Shown: piece by piece, positions 29,224 to 44,268 of the stretch
Numbering within the stretch: position 1 is the stretch's first letter
Layout: every line of letters begins with the position of its first letter
Source: an uncultured Elusimicrobiales bacterium
Lineage (GTDB): Bacteria; Elusimicrobiota; Elusimicrobia; Elusimicrobiales; Elusimicrobiaceae
DNA: 64,000 nucleotides
Assembly: GCA_944325225.1 (NCBI GenBank)
Contig: CALUZQ010000001.1
Span: forward strand, 1 to 64,000
Direction of reading: 5' to 3'
Translations under genes and position numbers: made by a program
The notes under the pieces: model-generated
The model's database searches: none
Told to the model about the DNA's origin: nothing
The model's input: the letters and a program-made list of their open reading frames with translations, nothing else

Positions 29224-29736
29224 ATGAATAAACATACTAAACGCGGTTTTACCTTAATAGAACTGCTGACGGTGGTATTAATTATTGGCGTGCTGACGGC
29301 GGTGGCTTTGCCTAATTATACGCGCTCCATTGAACGCGCGCGCGCCGTGGAAGCTATGGCCGGATTAAAAGCGCTGAACGATTCGGTTTACGCGTATGCC
29401 GCCGGCCGGACGGGAAATGATGCCTGCCCCACGGGGTTTAATAAACTATCTATTTCTTATCCGGGGGAAATGAGCGCCGACAAATCCACCATTACCACCA
29501 AGGATTTTGAATTTAAAATTAATTCGGCCACCAATGCCATTATCCCGGGGACGGACTGCCCCGGTGTTACGGCCAAACGCTTGGGGGGAAAGAAATACAA
29601 TTATATTATATGGAACCCGTATGTGCGCGGTACGGCCGGGAAGGGGGCTTCGCTGGCGTGTACGGGGGATAACGAGGACAGTATTACGGTTTGTCAGTCC
29701 TTGGACTTATATATAGCCGGCAGAAAACCGTATTAA
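29224..29736 (+). CDS. Type IV pilin-like protein, short leader
   Basis: MNKHTKRGFTLIELL gives a seven-residue leader to the prepilin site, followed by a helix with TAVALPNYTRSIERARA and a domain with four cysteines. A GGAG ribosome site is present 32 bases after dapL, so it may be partly read through from the dap pair. Codons in the motif differ from the cassette group. It ends at a strong terminator. Confidence 0.87.
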   Translation: MNKHTKRGFTLIELLTVVLIIGVLTAVALPNYTRSIERARAVEAMAGLKALNDSVYAYAAGRTGNDACPTGFNKLSISYPGEMSADKSTITTKDFEFKINSATNAIIPGTDCPGVTAKRLGGKKYNYIIWNPYVRGTAGKGASLACTGDNEDSITVCQSLDLYIAGRKPY

Positions 29737-30131: not shown

Positions 30132-30163
30132 TTGACTCGTTTTTTTTTTGATAAATTTTGCAT
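30132..30163 (+). promoter_or_regulatory. Pilin cassette promoter with T10 spacer tract
   Basis: TTGACT (30132-30137), CG, ten T (30140-30149), GA, TAAATT (30152-30157), six bases, ATG. Hexamer spacing is only 14, predicted to be poor for initiation. Confidence 0.5.
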
Positions 30164-30676
30164 ATGAACAAAATCTATCAAAAAAACTTCCCTGGCTATA
30201 AAAACGCCGGATTTACGCTAATAGAGCTGTTAGTAGTCGTTTTAATTATTGGGATTCTGGCATCCGCAGCCATGCCGCAATATGAAAAAGCGGTGGCTAA
30301 ATCCCGTTATACAAAATTAATACTTGCGGGAAAATCTTTAAAAGATGCTATGGAATCCTATTACCTGGCTAATGGAGATTATCCGCAGATGTGGGACCAA
30401 TTAGATCTTGAATATACGGGCTGTGAGTATTCTAATAGCGCTCGTTATATGTTGTGGTGTGATAATTTTGCTGTTGATATGTTTAATGGCTCGGATGCCA
30501 ACTTATTCATTTTTGATGTACATGGGCTGGAAGATAATGGGAAAAATATGCCAAGTACTACATTGCTGGAACAGGCCGAATCTCGGTATGTTGTTTGGTT
30601 GGAGCGATCAGATCATCCCGGAAAAACAGAGTGCCGCAGTAAAATAAGCGGATTATGTAAAAATATGGGATATTAA
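30164..30676 (+). CDS. Type IV pilin-like cassette gene, intact leader
   Basis: MNKIYQKNFPGYKNAG runs in frame into FTLIELLVVVLIIG. The globular part has four cysteines, an acidic middle and a C-terminal CRSKISGLCKN. An A7 run in the leader (where the 9.5 kb copy has A4 and the 19.1 kb copy A6) keeps this copy in frame. No Shine-Dalgarno is present. The gene sits as a single unit between a repeat block and a degraded region. Confidence 0.87.
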   Translation: MNKIYQKNFPGYKNAGFTLIELLVVVLIIGILASAAMPQYEKAVAKSRYTKLILAGKSLKDAMESYYLANGDYPQMWDQLDLEYTGCEYSNSARYMLWCDNFAVDMFNGSDANLFIFDVHGLEDNGKNMPSTTLLEQAESRYVVWLERSDHPGKTECRSKISGLCKNMGY

Positions 30677-34512: not shown

Positions 34513-35010
34513 TTAAAGGATGCGGCAATCCGGCTGGGCCTTTTTCTTCATCAGTTCGCGGTACAGCCGATAAACCGGTTTGCCCAGTTTGGGGTGTACA
34601 TAATCGGACAGAATATACGAAAGCGGTTTTAATACAAACTCCCGTTCCTGCAGGCGCGGGTGGGGTATGAAAAGCGGGAAGTGTTCATCGTCCACAAAAA
34701 GGATTTGGTCGTCATAAAACAGAATATCCAAATCAATCACGCGCGGCCCGTTGGGAAAAGTCGGCGTACGGCCCAGCTGGGTTTCCAGGGCTTTTAGTTT
34801 TTTAAGCAGCGGCAGCGGTTCATATGGCGTGCTGAGAATGACCACCGTATTGATAAAATCGGGCTGTTCCGTAAAACCTTCCGGTTTGGACACAATGTAC
34901 GGGGCCACTTCTTTGACCGTACCCAGTGCCGACAGGGCCTGTATCGCCCGGTCTATATTTTCTTTAGCGGGGGCCAGATTGCTGCCCAGGGAAAGGACGG
35001 CTTTTGGCAT
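34513..35010 (-). CDS. folK: 2-amino-4-hydroxy-6-hydroxymethyldihydropteridine diphosphokinase
   Basis: Transfers pyrophosphate from ATP to 6-hydroxymethyl-dihydropterin in folate synthesis. It starts LSLGSNLAPAKENIDRAI and carries RVIDLDILFYDD near residue 88 and IPHPRLQEREFVLKPL near residue 113, the HPPK signatures; length 165. Its start overlaps the stop of the PTPS gene by one base. It is the last gene of the queuosine-folate operon. Confidence 0.94.
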   Translation of the reverse strand: MPKAVLSLGSNLAPAKENIDRAIQALSALGTVKEVAPYIVSKPEGFTEQPDFINTVVILSTPYEPLPLLKKLKALETQLGRTPTFPNGPRVIDLDILFYDDQILFVDDEHFPLFIPHPRLQEREFVLKPLSYILSDYVHPKLGKPVYRLYRELMKKKAQPDCRIL

Positions 35011-35360
35011 TATTCTTCTCCTCGGTATTCAACCCAGCGGTCCGGTTCCTCGCCTACTTTTACGCTGTGCAAATGCGGCAGCCGCTCTTTTAACCGGTTG
35101 AACATCCATATACACAATGCTTCCGTGGTGGGCTGTGCCAGAAAAACGCCCAAGTCGCTGCCTTCCAGGCGGGATTCCAATTCGTTTTTAAAAGTATCGG
35201 CCAGCTGGCGGAAATCAATTAAATAACCCTCGGCATTTACGGGGCCGTAAAAAGTGATTTCGTAATGAAAAGTATGCGAATGCACGGGTTCGGCCAAGGT
35301 TCCTTCGTGCCCGTGCCGGGCGGTAAAACGGCCGCATTGGGTTAAATATATTTTGTTCAT
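35010..35360 (-). CDS. PTPS-family protein, probably the FolB-replacing type (PTPS-III)
   Basis: A 116-residue 6-pyruvoyl-tetrahydropterin synthase fold. Zinc-ligand histidines are seen in FTARH and VHSH. The catalytic Cys-x3-His-Gly-His of QueD is absent; the matching segment reads LAEPVHSH, with Glu and no Cys. Glu in this place is the known mark of PTPS-III enzymes that cleave dihydroneopterin triphosphate to 6-hydroxymethyl-dihydropterin and replace FolB. It lies between folP and folK, overlapping both, and no folB is in the operon. A canonical QueD is encoded three genes upstream. Confidence 0.75.
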   Translation of the reverse strand: MNKIYLTQCGRFTARHGHEGTLAEPVHSHTFHYEITFYGPVNAEGYLIDFRQLADTFKNELESRLEGSDLGVFLAQPTTEALCIWMFNRLKERLPHLHSVKVGEEPDRWVEYRGEE

Positions 35361-36154
35361 CGGGCTTGCTCCAGTTCTTGATAAAAATCCATTATTTTGC
35401 GCGTATCTTTTACATCGTGCACACGCAGGATATCCGCCCCGCCTTGTAATGCTATCAAGTGGGCGGCCAGCGTTTGCGCTTTGCGTTTGGGGGGAAGCTC
35501 GCGCTTTTGGCTTAAAAAGGTTTTGCGCGAAAGCCCCACCAGCATACGGACGCCCAATTCCTTAAAAACGGACAGGTGTTTTAAAAGTATATAATTTTGT
35601 TCGCGGGTTTTGGCAAATCCAAAGCCGGGGTCTATGATAATGTCGGCTGGGGGCAGCCCGCAGGAAACGGCCTGCTGGATTTTATCCGCCAGGAAATTTT
35701 TTACTTCTGCGAGAAAATCTGTATAATCCGTCATCGTCTGCATTGTTTGCGGGGTACCGCGCGTGTGCATAATAACGATTTGGGCTTTAAAATCCCGCAC
35801 CAGATTAAACATTTCTGGATCCGGCGTGCCGCTTACATCGTTGATGATAGACACCCCGGCTTTTAATCCTTCCAGGGCTACGGGTATTTTTACGGTGTCC
35901 AGGGAAAGGGGAATATGCGGCCATTTTTTTCGGGCGGCTTGAATCAGCGGCAGTACGCGGCGGAGTTCTTCTTCGGCTGAAACGGGCTCGGCGTTAGGGC
36001 GGGTGGATTCGCCTCCGATGTCAAAAATATCGGCTCCGCCGGCGGCGTAGTCGCGGCATTTGGCCAATAGCGAATCCAGGTTGTTTTGCGGTTCGCCGTC
36101 GTAAAATGAATCGGGCGTAGCGTTGATAATGCCCATTAAAAGCGGTTTAGTCAT
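35357..36154 (-). CDS. folP: Dihydropteroate synthase
   Basis: Condenses 6-hydroxymethyl-dihydropterin diphosphate with p-aminobenzoate. The TIM barrel has the expected loops: GIINATPDSFYDG at residue 8, DIGGESTRPNA near 45, SLDTVK near 84, INDVSG near 105, DPGFGFAKT near 172 and GLSRKTFL near 202; length 265. Its stop overlaps the PTPS start by four bases. It is the sulfonamide target class, but nothing here indicates resistance. Confidence 0.95.
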   Translation of the reverse strand: MTKPLLMGIINATPDSFYDGEPQNNLDSLLAKCRDYAAGGADIFDIGGESTRPNAEPVSAEEELRRVLPLIQAARKKWPHIPLSLDTVKIPVALEGLKAGVSIINDVSGTPDPEMFNLVRDFKAQIVIMHTRGTPQTMQTMTDYTDFLAEVKNFLADKIQQAVSCGLPPADIIIDPGFGFAKTREQNYILLKHLSVFKELGVRMLVGLSRKTFLSQKRELPPKRKAQTLAAHLIALQGGADILRVHDVKDTRKIMDFYQELEQAR

Positions 36155-36167
36155 AGTTTTTAGAAAG

Positions 36168-36788
36168 CTATTTTATCATTTCTAAAAATTCATTTCGCAC
36201 TTCCATTTTCTTAAAAGCCCCGCGAATGGCGCTGGTAACCATAACGGCGTTGTGTTTTTCAATGCCGCGGGAACTGATGCACATGTGTTTGGCTTTGCAT
36301 ACCACCATGACTCCGTGGGGCTGTAGGGTTTCCATTAAACTGTCGGCAATTTGGGCGACGAGTTTTTCCTGAATTTGCAGCCGCCGGGCAAATACTTCCA
36401 CCAGCCGCGCCAGTTTGGAAATGCCCAACACGCGCCCTTTGGGCAGATACCCAATGCTAATGGTGCCAAAAAAGGGCTGCAGGTGATGCTCGCAGGTGGA
36501 ATAAAATTCAATGTCTTTGAGGACGACCATTTCTTCGCAGGAGCCCTCGGTAAAGGTTTTTAATACATCTTGCGGCTTCATTTTGTAGCCGCCAAATAAT
36601 TTCTGCCAGCTTCTTACGATGCGGTGGGGGGTTTCCAACAATCCCTCGCGCGATGGATCATCGCCGATATAGGCGAGGATTTCCCGCAGGTTTTTTAAAA
36701 TTTTTTCTTCGCTCAGCGAATGTTTGCCAGCTTGTGCGTTTGCAAACTTAGCCGGGCGGACGGATGATTTTTTAATAGTTTTACGCAT
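36168..36788 (-). CDS. folE: GTP cyclohydrolase I
   Basis: Makes 7,8-dihydroneopterin triphosphate from GTP, the shared first step of folate and queuosine synthesis. The zinc ligands are visible in STCEHHLQPFFG near residue 100 and KAKHMCISSRG near residue 168; length 206. The ATG lies 76 bases inside the 3' end of queE in another frame, preceded by AGGAG, an unusually long overlap; no other ATG lies before the conserved region. Confidence 0.95.
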   Translation of the reverse strand: MRKTIKKSSVRPAKFANAQAGKHSLSEEKILKNLREILAYIGDDPSREGLLETPHRIVRSWQKLFGGYKMKPQDVLKTFTEGSCEEMVVLKDIEFYSTCEHHLQPFFGTISIGYLPKGRVLGISKLARLVEVFARRLQIQEKLVAQIADSLMETLQPHGVMVVCKAKHMCISSRGIEKHNAVMVTSAIRGAFKKMEVRNEFLEMIK

Positions 36789-37306
36789 AGGTCTATATTC
36801 TCCTGTTTGTTGCTTTCGGGCTGCAGATAAATTTGAGTGTGGGTGTTTTCATACGCATAGTATTTTTGCAAATCGTCTAAATCCGTATTCTGCCCGACGA
36901 CGATTTTAATCACATCGGCTTTTTTCAGCATTTCCGGGCTGACATATTTCTTGGGCGACACGCATACAAAATCGGCCCGGCTGACATCGGTATCTATGGA
37001 GCCGTTTGTTTCCAAATGCACGGCATAACCGGCCTTTTTCAACACCGCAATTAAGCCCGTCAAATCCTGTTCGGCCGGTTCCCCGCCGGTAATAATAACG
37101 GTTTTAGCGGGCCATTGGGCCAGGGTTTGCAGCAAGTGGGCCGAGTCGGTTTCTTTTCCTTCCCGGGCGGCGTATTGGGTGTCGCAAAACGGGCAGTTCA
37201 TAGAACAGCCCGCCAGCCGCACAAATACCGCGGGCATGCCGGTATGTTTGCCTTCCCCTTGGATAGAATAAAAAATCTCGTTAACCTTCCACGACGGCTG
37301 CGGCAT
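36713..37306 (-). CDS. queE: 7-carboxy-7-deazaguanine synthase
   Basis: A radical-SAM enzyme of the queuosine pathway. FYSIQGEGKHTGMPAVFVR (residues 12-30) and the cluster motif CSMNCPFC near residue 34 identify it, with ITGGEP near 73. It has 197 residues. It overlaps queD by 26 bases at its start and folE by 76 at its end, so the whole cluster is tightly packed. QueC is not in this window. Confidence 0.93.
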   Translation of the reverse strand: MPQPSWKVNEIFYSIQGEGKHTGMPAVFVRLAGCSMNCPFCDTQYAAREGKETDSAHLLQTLAQWPAKTVIITGGEPAEQDLTGLIAVLKKAGYAVHLETNGSIDTDVSRADFVCVSPKKYVSPEMLKKADVIKIVVGQNTDLDDLQKYYAYENTHTQIYLQPESNKQENIDLCVKLLKNHPSARLSLQTHKLANIR

Positions 37307-37625
37307 TGTCGCTCTCCCAGATTTCCAGCGTTTTAAGTTTTAAATTTTGTTTGGTCAGTTCCTGTCCGATTTTTTGGAATAAAAAATTAGCCAGATTTTC
37401 GGCGGTGGGATTTTCCACCCAGTCGTTTAGAAGCTGATGGTCCGGCAGGTTGTCGTCCAGCAGTTTTTTGATGACTTTAAAATCACACACCATACCGTCC
37501 GGCCGGATTTCGCCTTCTATCACAAAAACGGCTTTCCAAGTGTGTCCGTGCAAATGGTGGCAGGGCCCGTCGTAATGGGGCAGCCGGTGGGCGGAGCTGA
37601 AAGAACGAATAAGCTTAATGAGCAT
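37281..37625 (-). CDS. queD: 6-carboxy-5,6,7,8-tetrahydropterin synthase
   Basis: Converts dihydroneopterin triphosphate to carboxy-tetrahydropterin for queuosine. FSSAHRL supplies a zinc His near residue 13, and CHHLHGH near residue 22 is the canonical Cys-x3-His-Gly-His; a C-terminal WESDNA follows. Length 114. A GAGGAG site for it lies inside the end of the upstream membrane-protein gene, which stops at the adjacent base. Contrast the Cys-less paralogue at 35010-35360. Confidence 0.93.
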   Translation of the reverse strand: MLIKLIRSFSSAHRLPHYDGPCHHLHGHTWKAVFVIEGEIRPDGMVCDFKVIKKLLDDNLPDHQLLNDWVENPTAENLANFLFQKIGQELTKQNLKLKTLEIWESDNAAAVVEG

Positions 37626-38366
37626 TTATCTCTCCTCGGGTAAAGTGTTAAAAATTTGCTGCATATAGATAATACATAAAATAACCTGGGCCAGCGTAAA
37701 CAGCGGGATATTCCACCACAGCCGCACATACCACAGCGCGCACAGCGGCCCCAACAGAAAAAACGCCCATTTAAGCACCACCGCCCGCGGCAAGCGGGAC
37801 TGGTAAAACAGTTTAAAAAATAATCCAACCGTCCCTGCCAGCAGAAACCCAAATAACATCAGCAGCGGAATCAGCAACAGCGAAGTTAAGAAGCAAACGG
37901 CGCTAAGCGCTTCGGAAAGGGTGTCTTTTTCTTTGTTTAAATTTTCCTGGGAGGTAACAAAGTTAAGCGTCGGCGGCAGCGCGGTTTGCTGGATTCCGCC
38001 CGAAGAAAGCATATAGGCCTGGTTGCCGGAGATGAGCAGGAAAGTTTTGTTTTTTAGCATTTGTTCGGCCGTGGGCGGCGTAGTTAACGATGCGTCAAAA
38101 ACCAGGTTGAAATCGCTCTGCGGCACGGTAACGGATATCGGAGTTTTGGGGGCGGTTAATACGCCTTTTTCAAAAGTAACTTGCGGAAAATTTTTAAGCA
38201 GTACCGGCAAGTTTTTTTCTATATATCCGTTGGAAAAGAAGTAAAAAACGATCAGCGACAGCATAAATAAATAAATGCCAAAGGCCGCCATCTGCCGGGC
38301 TGAAGCAAAAGCCAGCCGGTGGTAAAAACGGAAAGAAAAAATAGTTTTTAGATGGGCAAAAAGCAT
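37626..38366 (-). CDS. DUF1189-like membrane protein
   Basis: A 246-residue protein with one N-terminal span, an extracytoplasmic region of about 110 residues (YIEKNLPVLLKNFPQVTFEKG onward in part) and three to four C-terminal spans. This is the layout of DUF1189 proteins, whose function is not known. It directly abuts queD and looks like the first gene of that operon, though a shared role is not evident. Confidence 0.65.
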   Translation of the reverse strand: MLFAHLKTIFSFRFYHRLAFASARQMAAFGIYLFMLSLIVFYFFSNGYIEKNLPVLLKNFPQVTFEKGVLTAPKTPISVTVPQSDFNLVFDASLTTPPTAEQMLKNKTFLLISGNQAYMLSSGGIQQTALPPTLNFVTSQENLNKEKDTLSEALSAVCFLTSLLLIPLLMLFGFLLAGTVGLFFKLFYQSRLPRAVVLKWAFFLLGPLCALWYVRLWWNIPLFTLAQVILCIIYMQQIFNTLPEER

Positions 38367-39006: not shown

Positions 39007-39192
39007 ATTTTCCTCCGTTGGTTTATCGTAGCAAATTTCGCAGGAGTTTCCACTGTTTGGAGCGGACAAAAAAGGGTTAGACGGCTCTCCGTACGCACGC
39101 GGGCACACGCGTACCCCTGTATATTGCAACACCGTGCGGAATTTATTAAGATATAACCGTGTTGTTTTATTTTCTATTTGGACAGAGGGCTT

Positions 39193-42100
39193 ATGTCTAA
39201 TAATCTTTTCTCATTTTTTTCTAAAAAAGATGCACCCGCCGCTCAGGTCATTAAGGCGCTTACTCCGGAGATGCTGGCTTTTTTGCAACAATTCCCTACC
39301 GCTATTTTATTGGTTAATGCAACGGGTAAAATCGTGTTTGCCAACAGCGCCGCGGCAGAGGTGCTGCATACAGAAATTTCCGCTTTGAACGGTTCGTCGG
39401 TGGACCGTTTCGGGCTGACGATGCCGCAGGTGCGGGCCATGGCGGAAGCCAAAGAACCGCATAAAACTATTTTACAGTTAGTTAATCGCAAGGCCGACAC
39501 CGTATATGTAAGCGCCGGGGCAGGCATTCTGGCTGCTACGCCGTTTATTATGCTGACGCTGGAAGCCGTTCCCCATTTTAAGCAGCTGACGGCTGAAAAA
39601 ACTTTTTTGCGATCGGTAATAGATAGTTATCCCGTACCGGTAACAGTGCAGAATTTTGCCGGGATTTGCACTTTGTGGAACGCTCCAGCGGAAAAAATGT
39701 TCGGCTTTAAAGCGGCCGATACGCAGGGGCATACGGTATATGATTTCCTGCCAAAAGAAATTGTCCCTTCGGTCCAGCGGCTGGATACCGAAGTGCGTGA
39801 AAAACAGCATTCGCGCGAGAATGTGCTGCTGTCTTATAAAGATGCAAAAGCAGAAGAACGGACGCTTTCTGTAACCAAAGTGCTGGCTCCGTCGGAAAAT
39901 GGCAAAAGCCAAACCATTTTAACCGTATATGAAGATGTAACGCTCCGGCAGCGCTATGAACAGGATTTGCTGCAGAACCGCACCCTGCTTCGCGCCGTGT
40001 TGGACAATGTGCCGCTGGGGCTCTATACCCGCGACTGCGACAATCAGATGACCTTTTTTAACCGCCAGAGTATGAAAGTGCTGGGCGAAACCGATGTAAA
40101 ATGCGTCAATACCCCGCACCCGCACCAAGATTCGGATGTGGTGGCTTTTCACCGTACCCGCGAACAGCAGGTGCTGGAAGAAGGAAAAATCAAAGATTAC
40201 CCCGAAGAAGTTTATGTGGACCATAATGGCAACGAAAAGATTTTGCATATGATTAAAGTGCCGCTGATAGACGCCGGCCCGAAACCGCTGGTATTGTCTA
40301 TTGTGGAGGATATTACGGAGCGTCATCGCCAGCAGAAAGAGATTGCCCGGGCGAACAGTTTTCTTTCCGCCATTGTGCAAAACGCGCCGATTGGCCTGTA
40401 TGCCCGCGCGGCAGACGGTCATATGCTGCTTCGCAATAAACAGTGCGAATTGATTTTTGGCGAAACTTCCGGGAAAGCGTTTGATTCCCAAGGTTCTTTG
40501 CCGCACGAAACGCCCGAACAGGTTCACTCGTATATTGAACGGGAGAAAAAACTGCTGGAAAGCGGAAAGGCACTGGATATCCCGGAAGAAGAATATGTTA
40601 CCGGCTCCGGAGAAAAGAAACTGCTGCATATGATTAAAGTGCCGGTGGGCGGGGCGGAAGGCGAGCCGCAGTTCGTGGTAACACTGGTAGAGGATATCAC
40701 CGAAAAACGCGCGCAGGAACGCACGCTGATTGAAACGAAAAATTTCCTGCAGACGCTGCTGGACCAGGTGCCGGTGGCCATCTATGCCCGCGGACAAGAT
40801 GACAAACTTTCTTTTATTAACCGCCGGGCGCATGAACTGTTCCCGGACGAAAAAGAATACCAGGCCAAAGACGATTTCTACGGCCAGCGGGAAGAGGCCA
40901 TCTTCCGCGACGGGAAAATGGTGGAATTTCCCGAAGAATGGTACACCACCTTGCGCGGGGACAGGATTTTGCTGCATTTAATTAAAGCCCCCGTGTTTGA
41001 TAAAGAAGGCAAGCCGTTTATGGTGCTGACGGTGGCCGAAGATATTACCCAGAAAAAAGCCCAGGAAAAAGCGCTTATTGACGCTAAAAACTTTTTGCAG
41101 ACCGTCATCAATAACCTGCCGGTGTCGCTGTCGGTTAAGGATTACGACGGGAAATATATCCTCTGGAATAAAAAGAGCGAAGAGTTATTTGGGGTAATGG
41201 CCGATGCCGTTATCGGGCGCACTTCGTACCGGGCGGATATCAATAAGGACCAGGCGGAATTTTTGCGCGAAGCGGACTTGCGTGTATTTGAAAGCAAAAA
41301 AGAGCAGGATATCCCGCAGGAACTTATTTCCACCGCCAGCGAAGGCGTTAAAATTATGCACACCGTCAAAACGCCTGTATTTAATGTGGACGGCACACCG
41401 AATTGTATGCTGGTGGTATCGGAAGATATTACCGCCAAAACCAAGATGGAAAAACAAATTCGCGAAGCCAGCGATAAAAACACCCTGCTGGTGGAAAATG
41501 CCCGGGAAGGGATTGTGATTTTGGAGGACGGAAAAGTAATTTATGCCAACCGTGCTCTGTGCCGCATTTTGGGATATGAAGAGGTGCAGGAAGTAAAAGG
41601 GAAAATGCTTACGGATATGGCGGCGGAGGATCATCGGATGTTCTTAAAAGACAAATACGACGCCGTGCTGGCCGGGTCCGATGATGCTTCTTCGGCAATA
41701 GATGTGCATTTTCTTAAAAAGAACGGCAGCGAGGTGGAAGCGGAGTTTGCGGCAGTAGCGTCTAAGTATTTAGGCCGGCGCATTGTGTTGTGCTTCGTGC
41801 GCGATGTAACCCATTCCAACCGTATGCTGCGCGAAGTAAAAACCGAACGGGAATGTTTCCGCTCTGCCTTTGAGAAAAGCGTTACGCCGGCGTTTATCCT
41901 CACGCATAAAGGATACATCAGCGTAATGAACGAGGCCTGCCGAAACCTGTTTGATTTTACCGAGTCGGATAAAAATTTCTACCGTAATGTGTATATGAAA
42001 CCGGCCGTTTCGCTGCCGGCGCGTAAACAATTAAAAGCCGGCAATCCCGCCCATATGGAGTATGTGTTTGATTTTGACCGCGCCGCACAAATGTTCCCCG

Positions 42101-44268
42101 GCCGCATACAGGGAACGGGCAAAATGCCGCTTTCAGTCAGTTTTGTACCAATCAATAAACGGGACGCCAAAGACGGTACAGTAGAGGCCGATTATGTGGT
42201 GTTTTTAGAGCCCCGGCAAACCCAGGCCCCCAGCGCACCGAAACCGGCCGCCCCGGCTAAACCGGCCAAACTGCGCCGCGCGCCGGCGCCGCCGGCACCG
42301 CCGGCTATGGTCATCAGCAAAACCGCTAAAGAAATGCTGGTGCTGCCCAACAGCGAGCCGTATGTGCTGTGCGGGGACGGGTGGAAAATTGAAGTGTGCA
42401 ATGATTTGTTCTGCTCGCTTTGCCAACTGTCCGAAGAAGAGTTGCTGGGGCAGGATTTGCGGCGGGTGTTTGATGCCGATTCGCTTCCCCGGTTGGAAGA
42501 AGATTTAAAATCGCTCCGGCAGGACGGCTCTTTGGCTAACCGTGAATATCATATTAATTTGGCCAGCGGACTGGAAAATACCGCCGTGCGCCTAACGGCT
42601 ATTAAAGAAACCGACGGACGGTATCTCTTTGTCATGCGCAATATGGCATTCCACCGCCAGATTATGAAAATTTTGGAGGAACGGTCCTCTCAGCTCAACG
42701 CCCTGTTGGAAGCAACAGACGGCGTGGTGTTTTCGGTTTTGTTTGAAAACGGACGCTTTGGACATATTGAACAAAGCAATAAATTTTTAACGCGCAAACT
42801 GGGTTTTTCGCATGACGAACTGGTGCATATGCCGTTTAGAGATTTATTCTTTGACAAAAACCATAACTCCGCCCACTGTAAACAAGTGCTGGACCGCGCC
42901 CAGGAGCAAGCCGCCACCCACGGAAAAGCGGACTTTAAACTCTCCGTACGCAAGAAAGACGGCAGTTCTTTTGAGGCGCAAGTGGTTGTTACGGTTATGG
43001 ACTTGCCCTCCAAAGATGCGGCGTTGGTGGTCATGCGGGATTTGGCGGAAGATTTGGACGAAGCATCCAAAGATTCCAAAGAAGCCCAGGAACTTAAAAG
43101 CGTCCGTCAGGCGCTGCCCGGGCTGTATTTAAAAACCGACAGCGATGGCCGGGTGTTGGAAGTATATTCCAACTTGGCGTATTTGGATAATACCCTGGCG
43201 GAGGAAACTTTCTTGAATAAAAAACCCGGCACCTATTGGCCGCAGGAAGCGTCCAGCCGGGCGTTGTTTGCCATCAAAGAGGCGCTTTCCATCAATGTCA
43301 GCACCCGCTTTGAATTTGAATGGACGGTTGCCGGCGTGCTTCGGTATTTTGAAGCGATGGTTACGCCGATTACCGGCCGGGCCGAAGCCGTACTGTGGGT
43401 AAAAGATGTATCAGAGCAGCGGGCTTACGATACCAAAATACACCAACTGTATCGGCTGGCCAGCGAGCCGGGGTTATCTATTACAGAACAAGTGGATAAA
43501 ATCCTGGCATTCGGGTTAAAAAATTTCCGAGCCGAAGTGGGGCTGGTCATTCGGTTTGATCAGGGCAAAAACGGGCTGGAGAGCCATATTGTCTATACGA
43601 CGCCGAATGAGTTGAATATAGAGCGGTATATGACTTTTCCGGTGGAAGAATGCCTGGTAGATGTACCGGACGGGAATGTGGTTATGTTTCCGGATTTGGA
43701 AAATGCAGATTGCTCGCGTTGCTTGCACAAGGAGAAAGGATTTGCGTCCATGCTGGCGGCCCCGCTGTATGTATCGGGTAAAGTGCAGGGGGCGCTGTGT
43801 TTTGCTTCGCGCCAAACCTGTCGGGACTTTGGCCCCGGTGCCGAAGAGCTGATGGGGATTATGTCCCGGCTGCTCAGTTTGCGCATTGAACTTAGACAAA
43901 CGGGCAAAATGCTTAGCGAGGCCTCCCGTTCGCTGGCGCGCACCTTGGAATATGTAGAAATGCCGGCCGTGATGATGGATTTGGATTATCAGGTAACTTT
44001 CGTCAATAAGCCGTTTTTGGAAGTTACCGGCCGCCGCACCAGCAATATGCTGGGACGCGATTTCTTTACAGAGGTCGTCCGCAACGAGGATCTTTCCAAA
44101 CAGATGTTTAAAGCGGCTGAAAATTCCGCCGCCGGAAATGCGTTCCAGGTGCGTATGGACTTGCTGCATGAAAACGGATTGTATGAGGATACCGGGTGGG
44201 ATGTTTTTGCCTGTAAAGATGCCGACGGCCGGGTGGACGGATACGCGCTGATAGCGTCGGAATCTTAA
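39193..44268 (+). CDS. Giant soluble multi-PAS/GAF protein without a visible output domain
   Basis: A 1691-residue cytoplasmic protein. I count about eleven to twelve PAS-like units: eight from residue about 25 to 1025, a Pro/Ala-rich linker (about 1030-1060), three more (about 1065-1410), a GAF-like domain (about 1415-1570, with MLAAPLYVSGKVQGALCFA) and a final PAS to the end. Units 3-6 are close internal repeats, ending in variants of VEDITERHRQQKE and sharing LLHMIKVP. No HisKA, HATPase, GGDEF, EAL, methyl-accepting or DNA-binding domain is visible, and no membrane span. It may be a sensory scaffold that signals through a partner. The ATG at 39193 has AGAGGG upstream. Confidence 0.85.
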   Translation: MSNNLFSFFSKKDAPAAQVIKALTPEMLAFLQQFPTAILLVNATGKIVFANSAAAEVLHTEISALNGSSVDRFGLTMPQVRAMAEAKEPHKTILQLVNRKADTVYVSAGAGILAATPFIMLTLEAVPHFKQLTAEKTFLRSVIDSYPVPVTVQNFAGICTLWNAPAEKMFGFKAADTQGHTVYDFLPKEIVPSVQRLDTEVREKQHSRENVLLSYKDAKAEERTLSVTKVLAPSENGKSQTILTVYEDVTLRQRYEQDLLQNRTLLRAVLDNVPLGLYTRDCDNQMTFFNRQSMKVLGETDVKCVNTPHPHQDSDVVAFHRTREQQVLEEGKIKDYPEEVYVDHNGNEKILHMIKVPLIDAGPKPLVLSIVEDITERHRQQKEIARANSFLSAIVQNAPIGLYARAADGHMLLRNKQCELIFGETSGKAFDSQGSLPHETPEQVHSYIEREKKLLESGKALDIPEEEYVTGSGEKKLLHMIKVPVGGAEGEPQFVVTLVEDITEKRAQERTLIETKNFLQTLLDQVPVAIYARGQDDKLSFINRRAHELFPDEKEYQAKDDFYGQREEAIFRDGKMVEFPEEWYTTLRGDRILLHLIKAPVFDKEGKPFMVLTVAEDITQKKAQEKALIDAKNFLQTVINNLPVSLSVKDYDGKYILWNKKSEELFGVMADAVIGRTSYRADINKDQAEFLREADLRVFESKKEQDIPQELISTASEGVKIMHTVKTPVFNVDGTPNCMLVVSEDITAKTKMEKQIREASDKNTLLVENAREGIVILEDGKVIYANRALCRILGYEEVQEVKGKMLTDMAAEDHRMFLKDKYDAVLAGSDDASSAIDVHFLKKNGSEVEAEFAAVASKYLGRRIVLCFVRDVTHSNRMLREVKTERECFRSAFEKSVTPAFILTHKGYISVMNEACRNLFDFTESDKNFYRNVYMKPAVSLPARKQLKAGNPAHMEYVFDFDRAAQMFPGRIQGTGKMPLSVSFVPINKRDAKDGTVEADYVVFLEPRQTQAPSAPKPAAPAKPAKLRRAPAPPAPPAMVISKTAKEMLVLPNSEPYVLCGDGWKIEVCNDLFCSLCQLSEEELLGQDLRRVFDADSLPRLEEDLKSLRQDGSLANREYHINLASGLENTAVRLTAIKETDGRYLFVMRNMAFHRQIMKILEERSSQLNALLEATDGVVFSVLFENGRFGHIEQSNKFLTRKLGFSHDELVHMPFRDLFFDKNHNSAHCKQVLDRAQEQAATHGKADFKLSVRKKDGSSFEAQVVVTVMDLPSKDAALVVMRDLAEDLDEASKDSKEAQELKSVRQALPGLYLKTDSDGRVLEVYSNLAYLDNTLAEETFLNKKPGTYWPQEASSRALFAIKEALSINVSTRFEFEWTVAGVLRYFEAMVTPITGRAEAVLWVKDVSEQRAYDTKIHQLYRLASEPGLSITEQVDKILAFGLKNFRAEVGLVIRFDQGKNGLESHIVYTTPNELNIERYMTFPVEECLVDVPDGNVVMFPDLENADCSRCLHKEKGFASMLAAPLYVSGKVQGALCFASRQTCRDFGPGAEELMGIMSRLLSLRIELRQTGKMLSEASRSLARTLEYVEMPAVMMDLDYQVTFVNKPFLEVTGRRTSNMLGRDFFTEVVRNEDLSKQMFKAAENSAAGNAFQVRMDLLHENGLYEDTGWDVFACKDADGRVDGYALIASES

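What the first reader, a model, noticed from the sequence alone, without database searches (positions are those of the whole stretch)
35010..37625. Two PTPS paralogues split between folate and queuosine
The operon encodes QueD with the canonical CHHLHGH and a second PTPS with LAEPVHSH, which lacks the catalytic Cys but has a Glu. That second gene lies between folP and folK and no folB is present. PTPS-III enzymes with Glu in this position are known to replace FolB, so this operon probably carries both pathways fed by one FolE.
Basis: partly seen in the sequence, partly recalled or inferred. Interest (0 to 1): 0.55.

Follow-up and report, generated by a model that had tools for sequence, protein, structure and literature searches.

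The report
Folate stand-in enzyme beside QueD
A gut bacterium of the Elusimicrobia group lacks the usual folate enzyme FolB and appears to use a remodelled copy of a tRNA-modification enzyme in its place; in a sample of its phylum one glutamate in that enzyme family appears almost only in genomes that need the substitute.

Summary
On the minus strand lie queD (CHHLHGH), queE, folE, folP, a second PTPS-fold gene (LAEPVHSH) and folK, four of the five junctions overlapping. The genome has exactly two PTPS genes and no FolB match.

In 5 of 35 genus loci the second gene is fused to folK. In single-contig genome G090 it sits beside folK, about 147 kb from queD. Among 138 sampled genomes of the phylum, a PTPS bearing the Glu is present in 97 of 99 that have folK but no folB, and in 3 of 39 others. 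Relative G164 has the same operon without the second gene; there the QueD copy itself reads CEALHGH, the published dual-function motif.

The window's protein is not a textbook PTPS-III: the HGH glycine is replaced, and the Asp-His pair kept in 135 of 135 Cys-bearing copies is absent from all 41 dedicated copies that could be read. And the phylum offers natural with/without comparisons of the Glu.

Not shown: activity, substrate, kinetics. I call it a new variant of PTPS-III.

The parts
37281..37625 (-). queD, PTPS-I (Cys type, CHHLHGH; Asp-His pair DH kept; no Glu after the Cys)
   Evidence: relatives
36713..37306 (-). queE, radical-SAM 7-carboxy-7-deazaguanine synthase
36168..36788 (-). folE, GTP cyclohydrolase I, taken to feed both branches
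   Evidence: ATG with AGGAG upstream
35357..36154 (-). folP, dihydropteroate synthase
35010..35360 (-). PTPS-III-like paralogue; Glu24, zinc histidines 16/27/29, Glu104; Cys and Asp-His pair absent
   Evidence: relatives
34513..35010 (-). folK (HPPK), overlaps the PTPS-III-like gene by 1 nt; fused to it in 5 relatives
37626..38366 (-). 246-aa protein without a Pfam or NCBIfam match, directly upstream of queD; found there in the genus loci that reach so far

Best explanation
The operon makes two pterin-derived products from one precursor. FolE turns GTP into 7,8-dihydroneopterin triphosphate. QueD (Cys plus Asp-His) takes it to 6-carboxytetrahydropterin, then QueE and (elsewhere in the genome) QueC lead to preQ0 and queuosine. 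The second paralogue keeps the zinc site (His16, His27, His29) and the pterin-anchoring Glu104, and uses Glu24 in place of the Cys; it cleaves the side chain to 6-hydroxymethyl-7,8-dihydropterin, standing in for FolB, and hands it to FolK, its neighbour and in some relatives its fusion partner, then FolP and FolC. Shown here: the genes, the absence of a FolB match, the residues, the gene links and the covariation over 138 genomes. Inferred: the reaction, the substrate, the roles of zinc histidines and Glu104 (by homology), and that loss of the Asp-His pair means it is not needed for the folate reaction.
For: No FolB match here or in the other 60 genomes of the order searched. FolC and QueC present in this genome. 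Gene order folP-PTPS2-folK in 35 of 35 genus loci fetched, 5 of them with PTPS2 and FolK as one ORF, both domains over Pfam cut-offs. In G090 PTPS2-folK lies about 147 kb from queD-queE-folE. Glu24, the three zinc histidines and Glu104 invariant in 38 of 38 aligned sequences. Of 138 genomes, a Glu-bearing PTPS occurs in 97 of 99 folK+ folB- and 3 of 39 others. All 34 Cys copies read in family genomes with the dedicated paralogue lack the Glu, while single-copy family members G164 and G170 have CEALHGH and CERLHGH. In G164 the operon is queD-queE-folE-folP-folK with no gene between folP and folK. Confident model (pLDDT 94) matches E. coli QueD, PTPS and Plasmodium PTPS. Glu38 mutants of P. falciparum PTPS lose 6HMDP production (PMC2229834, section read).
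Against: No biochemistry. G118 and G262 have folK, no FolB match and no Glu-type PTPS, so some lineage solves the step another way or FolB was missed; G051, G240 and G243 keep CExxHGH without detected folK. The strict motif ExxHGH is not met in the window. No DHFR of PF00186 in the genome, so the last folate step is unassigned. Window queD is below the NCBIfam QueD cut-off. On starred branches only 4 independent contrasts exist (none against; sign test median 0.125); 8 on the best tree regardless of support. Two genus genomes, G013 and G231, have no PTPS match at all; G013's folK lies at a contig end, G231 also has no folK match.
Confidence: 0.88

Rival explanations
1. It is a FolB replacement, but works on dihydroneopterin monophosphate or dihydroneopterin rather than the triphosphate, like the archaeal members of the group.
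For: Its best solved sequence relative is Pyrococcus horikoshii PH0634, whose motif is also ExxHGH; PMC5041015 section 5 (read) says archaeal PTPS-III may use the monophosphate. The lost Asp-His pair hints at altered chemistry.
Against: No phosphatase for DHNTP was looked for; nothing in the sequence read here decides the substrate.
Confidence: 0.2
2. It is a catalytically dead PTPS that stabilises or steers FolK, and the aldolase step is done by an unrecognised enzyme.
For: Loss of Cys, Asp-His and the HGH glycine; fusion to FolK in 5 genomes; G118 and G262 show that folK can occur without FolB or a Glu-type PTPS being found.
Against: Zinc histidines, Glu24 and Glu104 invariant in 38 of 38 aligned sequences, identities down to 36%; the Glu tracks a folB-less folate pathway over 138 genomes; hybrids carry the Glu where no dedicated gene was found.
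Confidence: 0.05
3. QueD in this operon serves both pathways and the second paralogue makes some other pterin.
For: Dual-function PTPS-I/III enzymes exist (PMC5041015, section 5).
Against: The published dual motif is CExxHGH; the window has CHHLHGH and all 34 family QueD copies read beside a dedicated gene lack the Glu.
Confidence: 0.04
4. The covariation of the Glu with folK/folB is shared ancestry, not function.
For: Large clades share one state; the Fisher value ignores relatedness; only 4 starred independent contrasts.
Against: 8 changes of the Glu on the best tree; in 8 edge-disjoint contrasts of that tree folate need goes the same way in 6-8 and the other way in 0; inside family f2 the non-Glu residues are R, K, A, G and S.
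Confidence: 0.08

Closest known systems
PTPS-III (COG0720 subgroup; P. falciparum PTPS, bacterial FolB bypass)
   Same: Glu three residues before HxH, no catalytic Cys, zinc histidines, next to folate genes, no folB match in the genome, same fold as Plasmodium PTPS (Z 12.4-13.0)
   Different: HSH in place of HGH (E, T, D, K, P, A, Q, R or S in 38 of 38 family copies; L264 and L267 do keep HGH), Asp-His pair lost, a His where the usual Tyr stands, separate clan within the phylum (100/99)
PTPS-I/III hybrid (CExxHGH)
   Same: Found in the same operon in G164 and as the single copy in most folB-less families sampled
   Different: The hybrid keeps Cys and Asp-His; the window has the two roles on two genes
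QueD (PTPS-I)
   Same: Window queD has CxxxHGH, DH and queE next door; the second paralogue shares the fold (E. coli QueD Z 17.2)
   Different: The second paralogue lacks Cys and Asp-His
FolB (dihydroneopterin aldolase)
   Same: Proposed product; related fold (Z 8.3-10.3)
   Different: No PF02152 match; FolB has no zinc-histidine site (recalled)

Membership tests
PTPS-III | Signature ExxHGH (PMC5041015 section 5) | tested here: not met
   EPVHSH in the window; Glu and both His invariant, the Gly replaced in 38 of 38 family dedicated copies; but two of the 38 aligned (L264, L267) do have ExxHGH, so the clan itself includes strict-motif members
PTPS-III | Glu replaces or accompanies the active-site Cys | tested here: met
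   Glu24 invariant; Ala, Asn or Ser at the Cys column in the family
PTPS-III | No folB in the genome while other folate genes are there | tested here: met
   (FolE, FolP, FolK, FolC present; DHFR of PF00186 not found); genome 93% complete
PTPS-III | Clustered with folate genes | tested here: met
PTPS-III | Produces 6-hydroxymethyldihydropterin / complements a folB mutant | not testable with these tools
   bench test needed
PTPS/QueD superfamily (PF01242) | Pfam PTPS over the gathering score, three zinc histidines, PTPS fold | tested here: met
   64.8 bits against 22.4; three His in 180 of 180 aligned relatives and in 38 of 38; fold
PTPS/QueD superfamily (PF01242) | Asp-His pair of the catalytic relay (role recalled) | tested here: not met
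   EG in the window protein; DH in 135 of 135 Cys copies and in none of 42 dedicated copies, one of which is masked there
QueD (PTPS-I), window 37281-37625 | CxxxHGH and neighbouring queE | tested here: met
QueD (PTPS-I), window 37281-37625 | NCBIfam equivalog TIGR03367 over its cut-off | tested here: not met
   79.0 bits against 89.25

The most novel reading that the evidence does not exclude
The family's dedicated enzyme is a catalytically distinct FolB replacement: freed from the queuosine reaction it dropped not only the Cys but the Asp-His relay and, in nearly all members, the HGH glycine, and has an invariant His at the usual Tyr position near the first zinc ligand, so that side-chain cleavage runs on Zn, Glu24 and perhaps His18 alone. 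The phylum would then show a three-state evolution (hybrid CExxHGH; split Cys-only plus Glu-only; Glu lost where folate synthesis is gone or FolB is present) that separates the residues of the two reactions of one enzyme family.
Probability: 0.4. Interest if true: 0.6.

Novelty: new variant of a known kind. Interest (0 to 1): 0.48.

Why it matters
It supports a FolB bypass in Elusimicrobiota and gives a natural with/without series for one catalytic glutamate: the same operon exists with a CE hybrid and no paralogue, or with a Glu-free QueD plus a Glu-only paralogue. That makes it directly testable which residues serve queuosine and which serve folate. It also shows that the published strict motif (ExxHGH) would miss most of this family's enzymes; NCBIfam leaves the window protein below all its PTPS/QueD cut-offs.

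Tried and rejected
Rfam search of the window for a preQ1 or tetrahydrofolate riboswitch: one tRNA only at gathering scores. Recent duplication inside the family was considered: the tree puts all dedicated copies on one side of a 99/96 branch and the family's QueD/hybrid copies (except that of G166) in their own clan (97/98), so the split looks old or acquired, but the alignment is short (137 columns), the sample is 69 rows and the root is not inferred. A reading of His18 as a wholly new residue was softened: it aligns with the usual Tyr, and 11 of 135 Cys copies also have His there. FolB being merely missed: E up to 10 in the own genome gave nothing; the same model finds 47 of 294 genomes in the phylum, three of them weak and under the cut-off (G111, G186, G201), which I counted as folB+. 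Dropped before counting: L205 (same copy as L141), the truncated QueD of G022, genomes without a PTPS match (G013 and G052; G245, G266 and G270); three more dedicated-gene genomes (G004, G020, G036) have no QueD in the stretch read. The window's genome is not among the 138. The tree used every fourth genus copy. A sixth PTPS-FolK fusion is suggested in G083 by a 334-aa frame that both families hit, not fetched. Literature: among the titles listed by the searches (three of them cut to the best 15-20 of 36-140 papers) I saw none on this operon, on PTPS-III in Elusimicrobiota or on a PTPS-FolK fusion; most subscription papers, including the original bacterial PTPS-III paper (identifier recalled), are not held, so this is no proof of absence. 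PMC4674097 (passages) called a Rickettsia PTPS a PTPS-III; PMC5615194 (passages) disputes it because the Glu is absent there. Here the Glu is present.
Full report
What is there. The minus strand between 38366 and 34513 carries, in order, a 246-aa unknown, queD, queE, folE, folP, a second PTPS-fold gene and folK. The junctions queD/queE, queE/folE, folP/second PTPS and second PTPS/folK overlap. QueD reads CHHLHGH; the second protein reads LAEPVHSH. The published signatures are CxxxHGH for PTPS-I (QueD), ExxHGH for PTPS-III and CExxHGH for a dual enzyme (PMC5041015, section 5 read in full). The window's Glu sits at the ExxH position.

FolB. PF02152 gives no match at E<=10 in the window's genome (93% complete), while the same search rings in 12 of 14 controls, 10 over the cut-off. 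None of 61 genomes of the order has one. In the phylum 47 of 294 genomes do, all in other families of the same class. The window's genome has exactly two PTPS genes, and also FolC and QueC, but no DHFR of PF00186 at E<=1.

Gene links. In 35 loci of the same genus the order folP, second PTPS, folK is kept; in five of them (G004, G015, G019, G022, G032) the second PTPS and FolK are one open reading frame, with both domains over Pfam's cut-offs. The 36th genus genome of that set, G013, has no PTPS match and a folK at a contig end. In G090, a single-contig genome of 1,643,562 bases (probably Elusimicrobium minutum, recalled from the size), the second PTPS and folK lie together while queD, queE and folE lie about 147 kb away; L264 and L267 likewise show it with folK and without queD in the stretch held. 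Of 55 loci found in named genomes, 51 titles name Elusimicrobia in some form and 4 say only uncultured bacterium (that scan used one conserved pattern, so it does not prove restriction to the phylum).

The natural experiment. Family f2 of the same order has mostly one PTPS. All 13 f2 genomes with folK in the first set read CENLHGH; of 10 without folK, 9 have R, K, A, G or S in place of the Glu and one (G051) keeps it. I then sampled 80 more genomes of the phylum, 77 with a PTPS. Over 138 genomes (window's own not counted): folK+ folB-: 55 hybrid, 42 with a dedicated Glu-only paralogue, 2 without Glu (G118, G262). folB+: 24 of 24 without Glu (three of these folB calls are weak). folK- folB-: 12 without Glu, 3 with (G051, G240, G243). 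That is 97 of 99 against 3 of 39. The Fisher value printed ignores relatedness and should not be quoted as a probability. On a tree of 111 Cys copies with the Glu column masked, the Glu changes 8 times on the best tree; 4 contrasts rest on starred branches, on average 3.7 in the expected direction and none against, which cannot reach significance; on the best tree without regard to support, 8 contrasts give 6-8 with and 0 against.

Inside the window's own family, G164 and G170 have one PTPS each, CEALHGH and CERLHGH. G164 has the same operon as the window but nothing between folP and folK. A third single-copy member, G166, has no folK match and reads CRFLHGH. The 34 Cys copies read in family genomes with the dedicated gene never have the Glu (H 19, R 6, Y 4, Q 2, A, S, N 1 each). 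The two roles thus lie on one gene or on two, and the Glu follows the folate role.

The remodelled active site. All 42 dedicated copies keep the Glu aligned to Glu104, and all 180 aligned copies keep the three zinc histidines. The Asp-His pair is DH in 135 of 135 Cys copies. Of 42 dedicated copies none reads DH; one is masked; family f4 has DY or NY, the window's family mostly EG, DG or NG, with four copies that keep a His after a changed first residue (EH, HH twice, NH). The HGH glycine is kept in the four f4/f11 copies and lost in all 38 of the window's family in that set; of the 38 sequences aligned, L264 and L267 keep it. A His stands at the usual Tyr position in all 38 family copies. The naming of the Asp-His pair as a proton relay is from recall. 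PH0634 of Pyrococcus, the nearest solved relative by sequence, keeps LDH with ExxHGH, so the loss is not general among Glu-type enzymes.

Structure. AlphaFold2 on the window protein with 37 relatives gives pLDDT 94.0, pTM 0.87. Foldseek and VIA-align place it with PTPS and QueD (E. coli QueD Z 17.2, 1.5 A, 113 residues; Plasmodium PTPS Z 12.4-13.0), FolB lower at Z 8.3-10.3.

Mechanism. In P. falciparum PTPS, Glu38 is needed for 6-hydroxymethyldihydropterin; Glu38Cys and Glu38Gln gave only the other pterin product, Glu38Leu none (PMC2229834, section read). By homology the window protein should cleave the side chain of DHNTP or a dephosphorylated form with Zn and Glu24. Whether the missing Asp-His pair changes product purity (less of the pyruvoyl product) is an attractive but untested idea.

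Verdict. Observation confirmed; interpretation supported with about 0.88 confidence. Functionally it works like PTPS-III; the window protein does not meet the strict published motif, so I file it as a new variant.

Noticed in passing
own genome contig C9, locus L212:118-2163: QueC lies at the C-terminal end of a 681-aa ORF whose N-terminal part matches 2-phosphosulpholactate phosphatase (PF04029), with some 300 residues between them.
   Followed up: partly
own genome G000: FolC is present but no DHFR of PF00186 is found at E<=1, so the last folate reduction is unassigned.
   Followed up: partly
L072:1492-3117: In G038 of family f2 FolK is the N-terminal part of a protein with Mur-ligase domains, read as a FolK-FolC fusion; the other f2 folK frames are similarly long.
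   Followed up: partly
L200, L201, L202 (G147, G089, G079): A third PTPS-fold protein with ASYLHGH, MH in place of DH and Ser at the Glu104 position, the same in three genera of two families.
   Followed up: no
L196, L199 (G262, G118): Two genomes with folK, no FolB match and no Glu-type PTPS: the dihydroneopterin step is unexplained.
   Followed up: no
window 36713-36788: folE's ATG, with AGGAG upstream, lies 76 nt inside queE, a long overlap.
   Followed up: no
window 39178-44268: A 1696-aa ORF read by eye as many repeated PAS-like sensor domains, on the other strand beyond the operon's 5' end.
   Followed up: no
window 29224-29736 and 30158-30676: Two type IV pilin-like ORFs, by eye from a GFTLIELL stretch near the start.
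   Followed up: no
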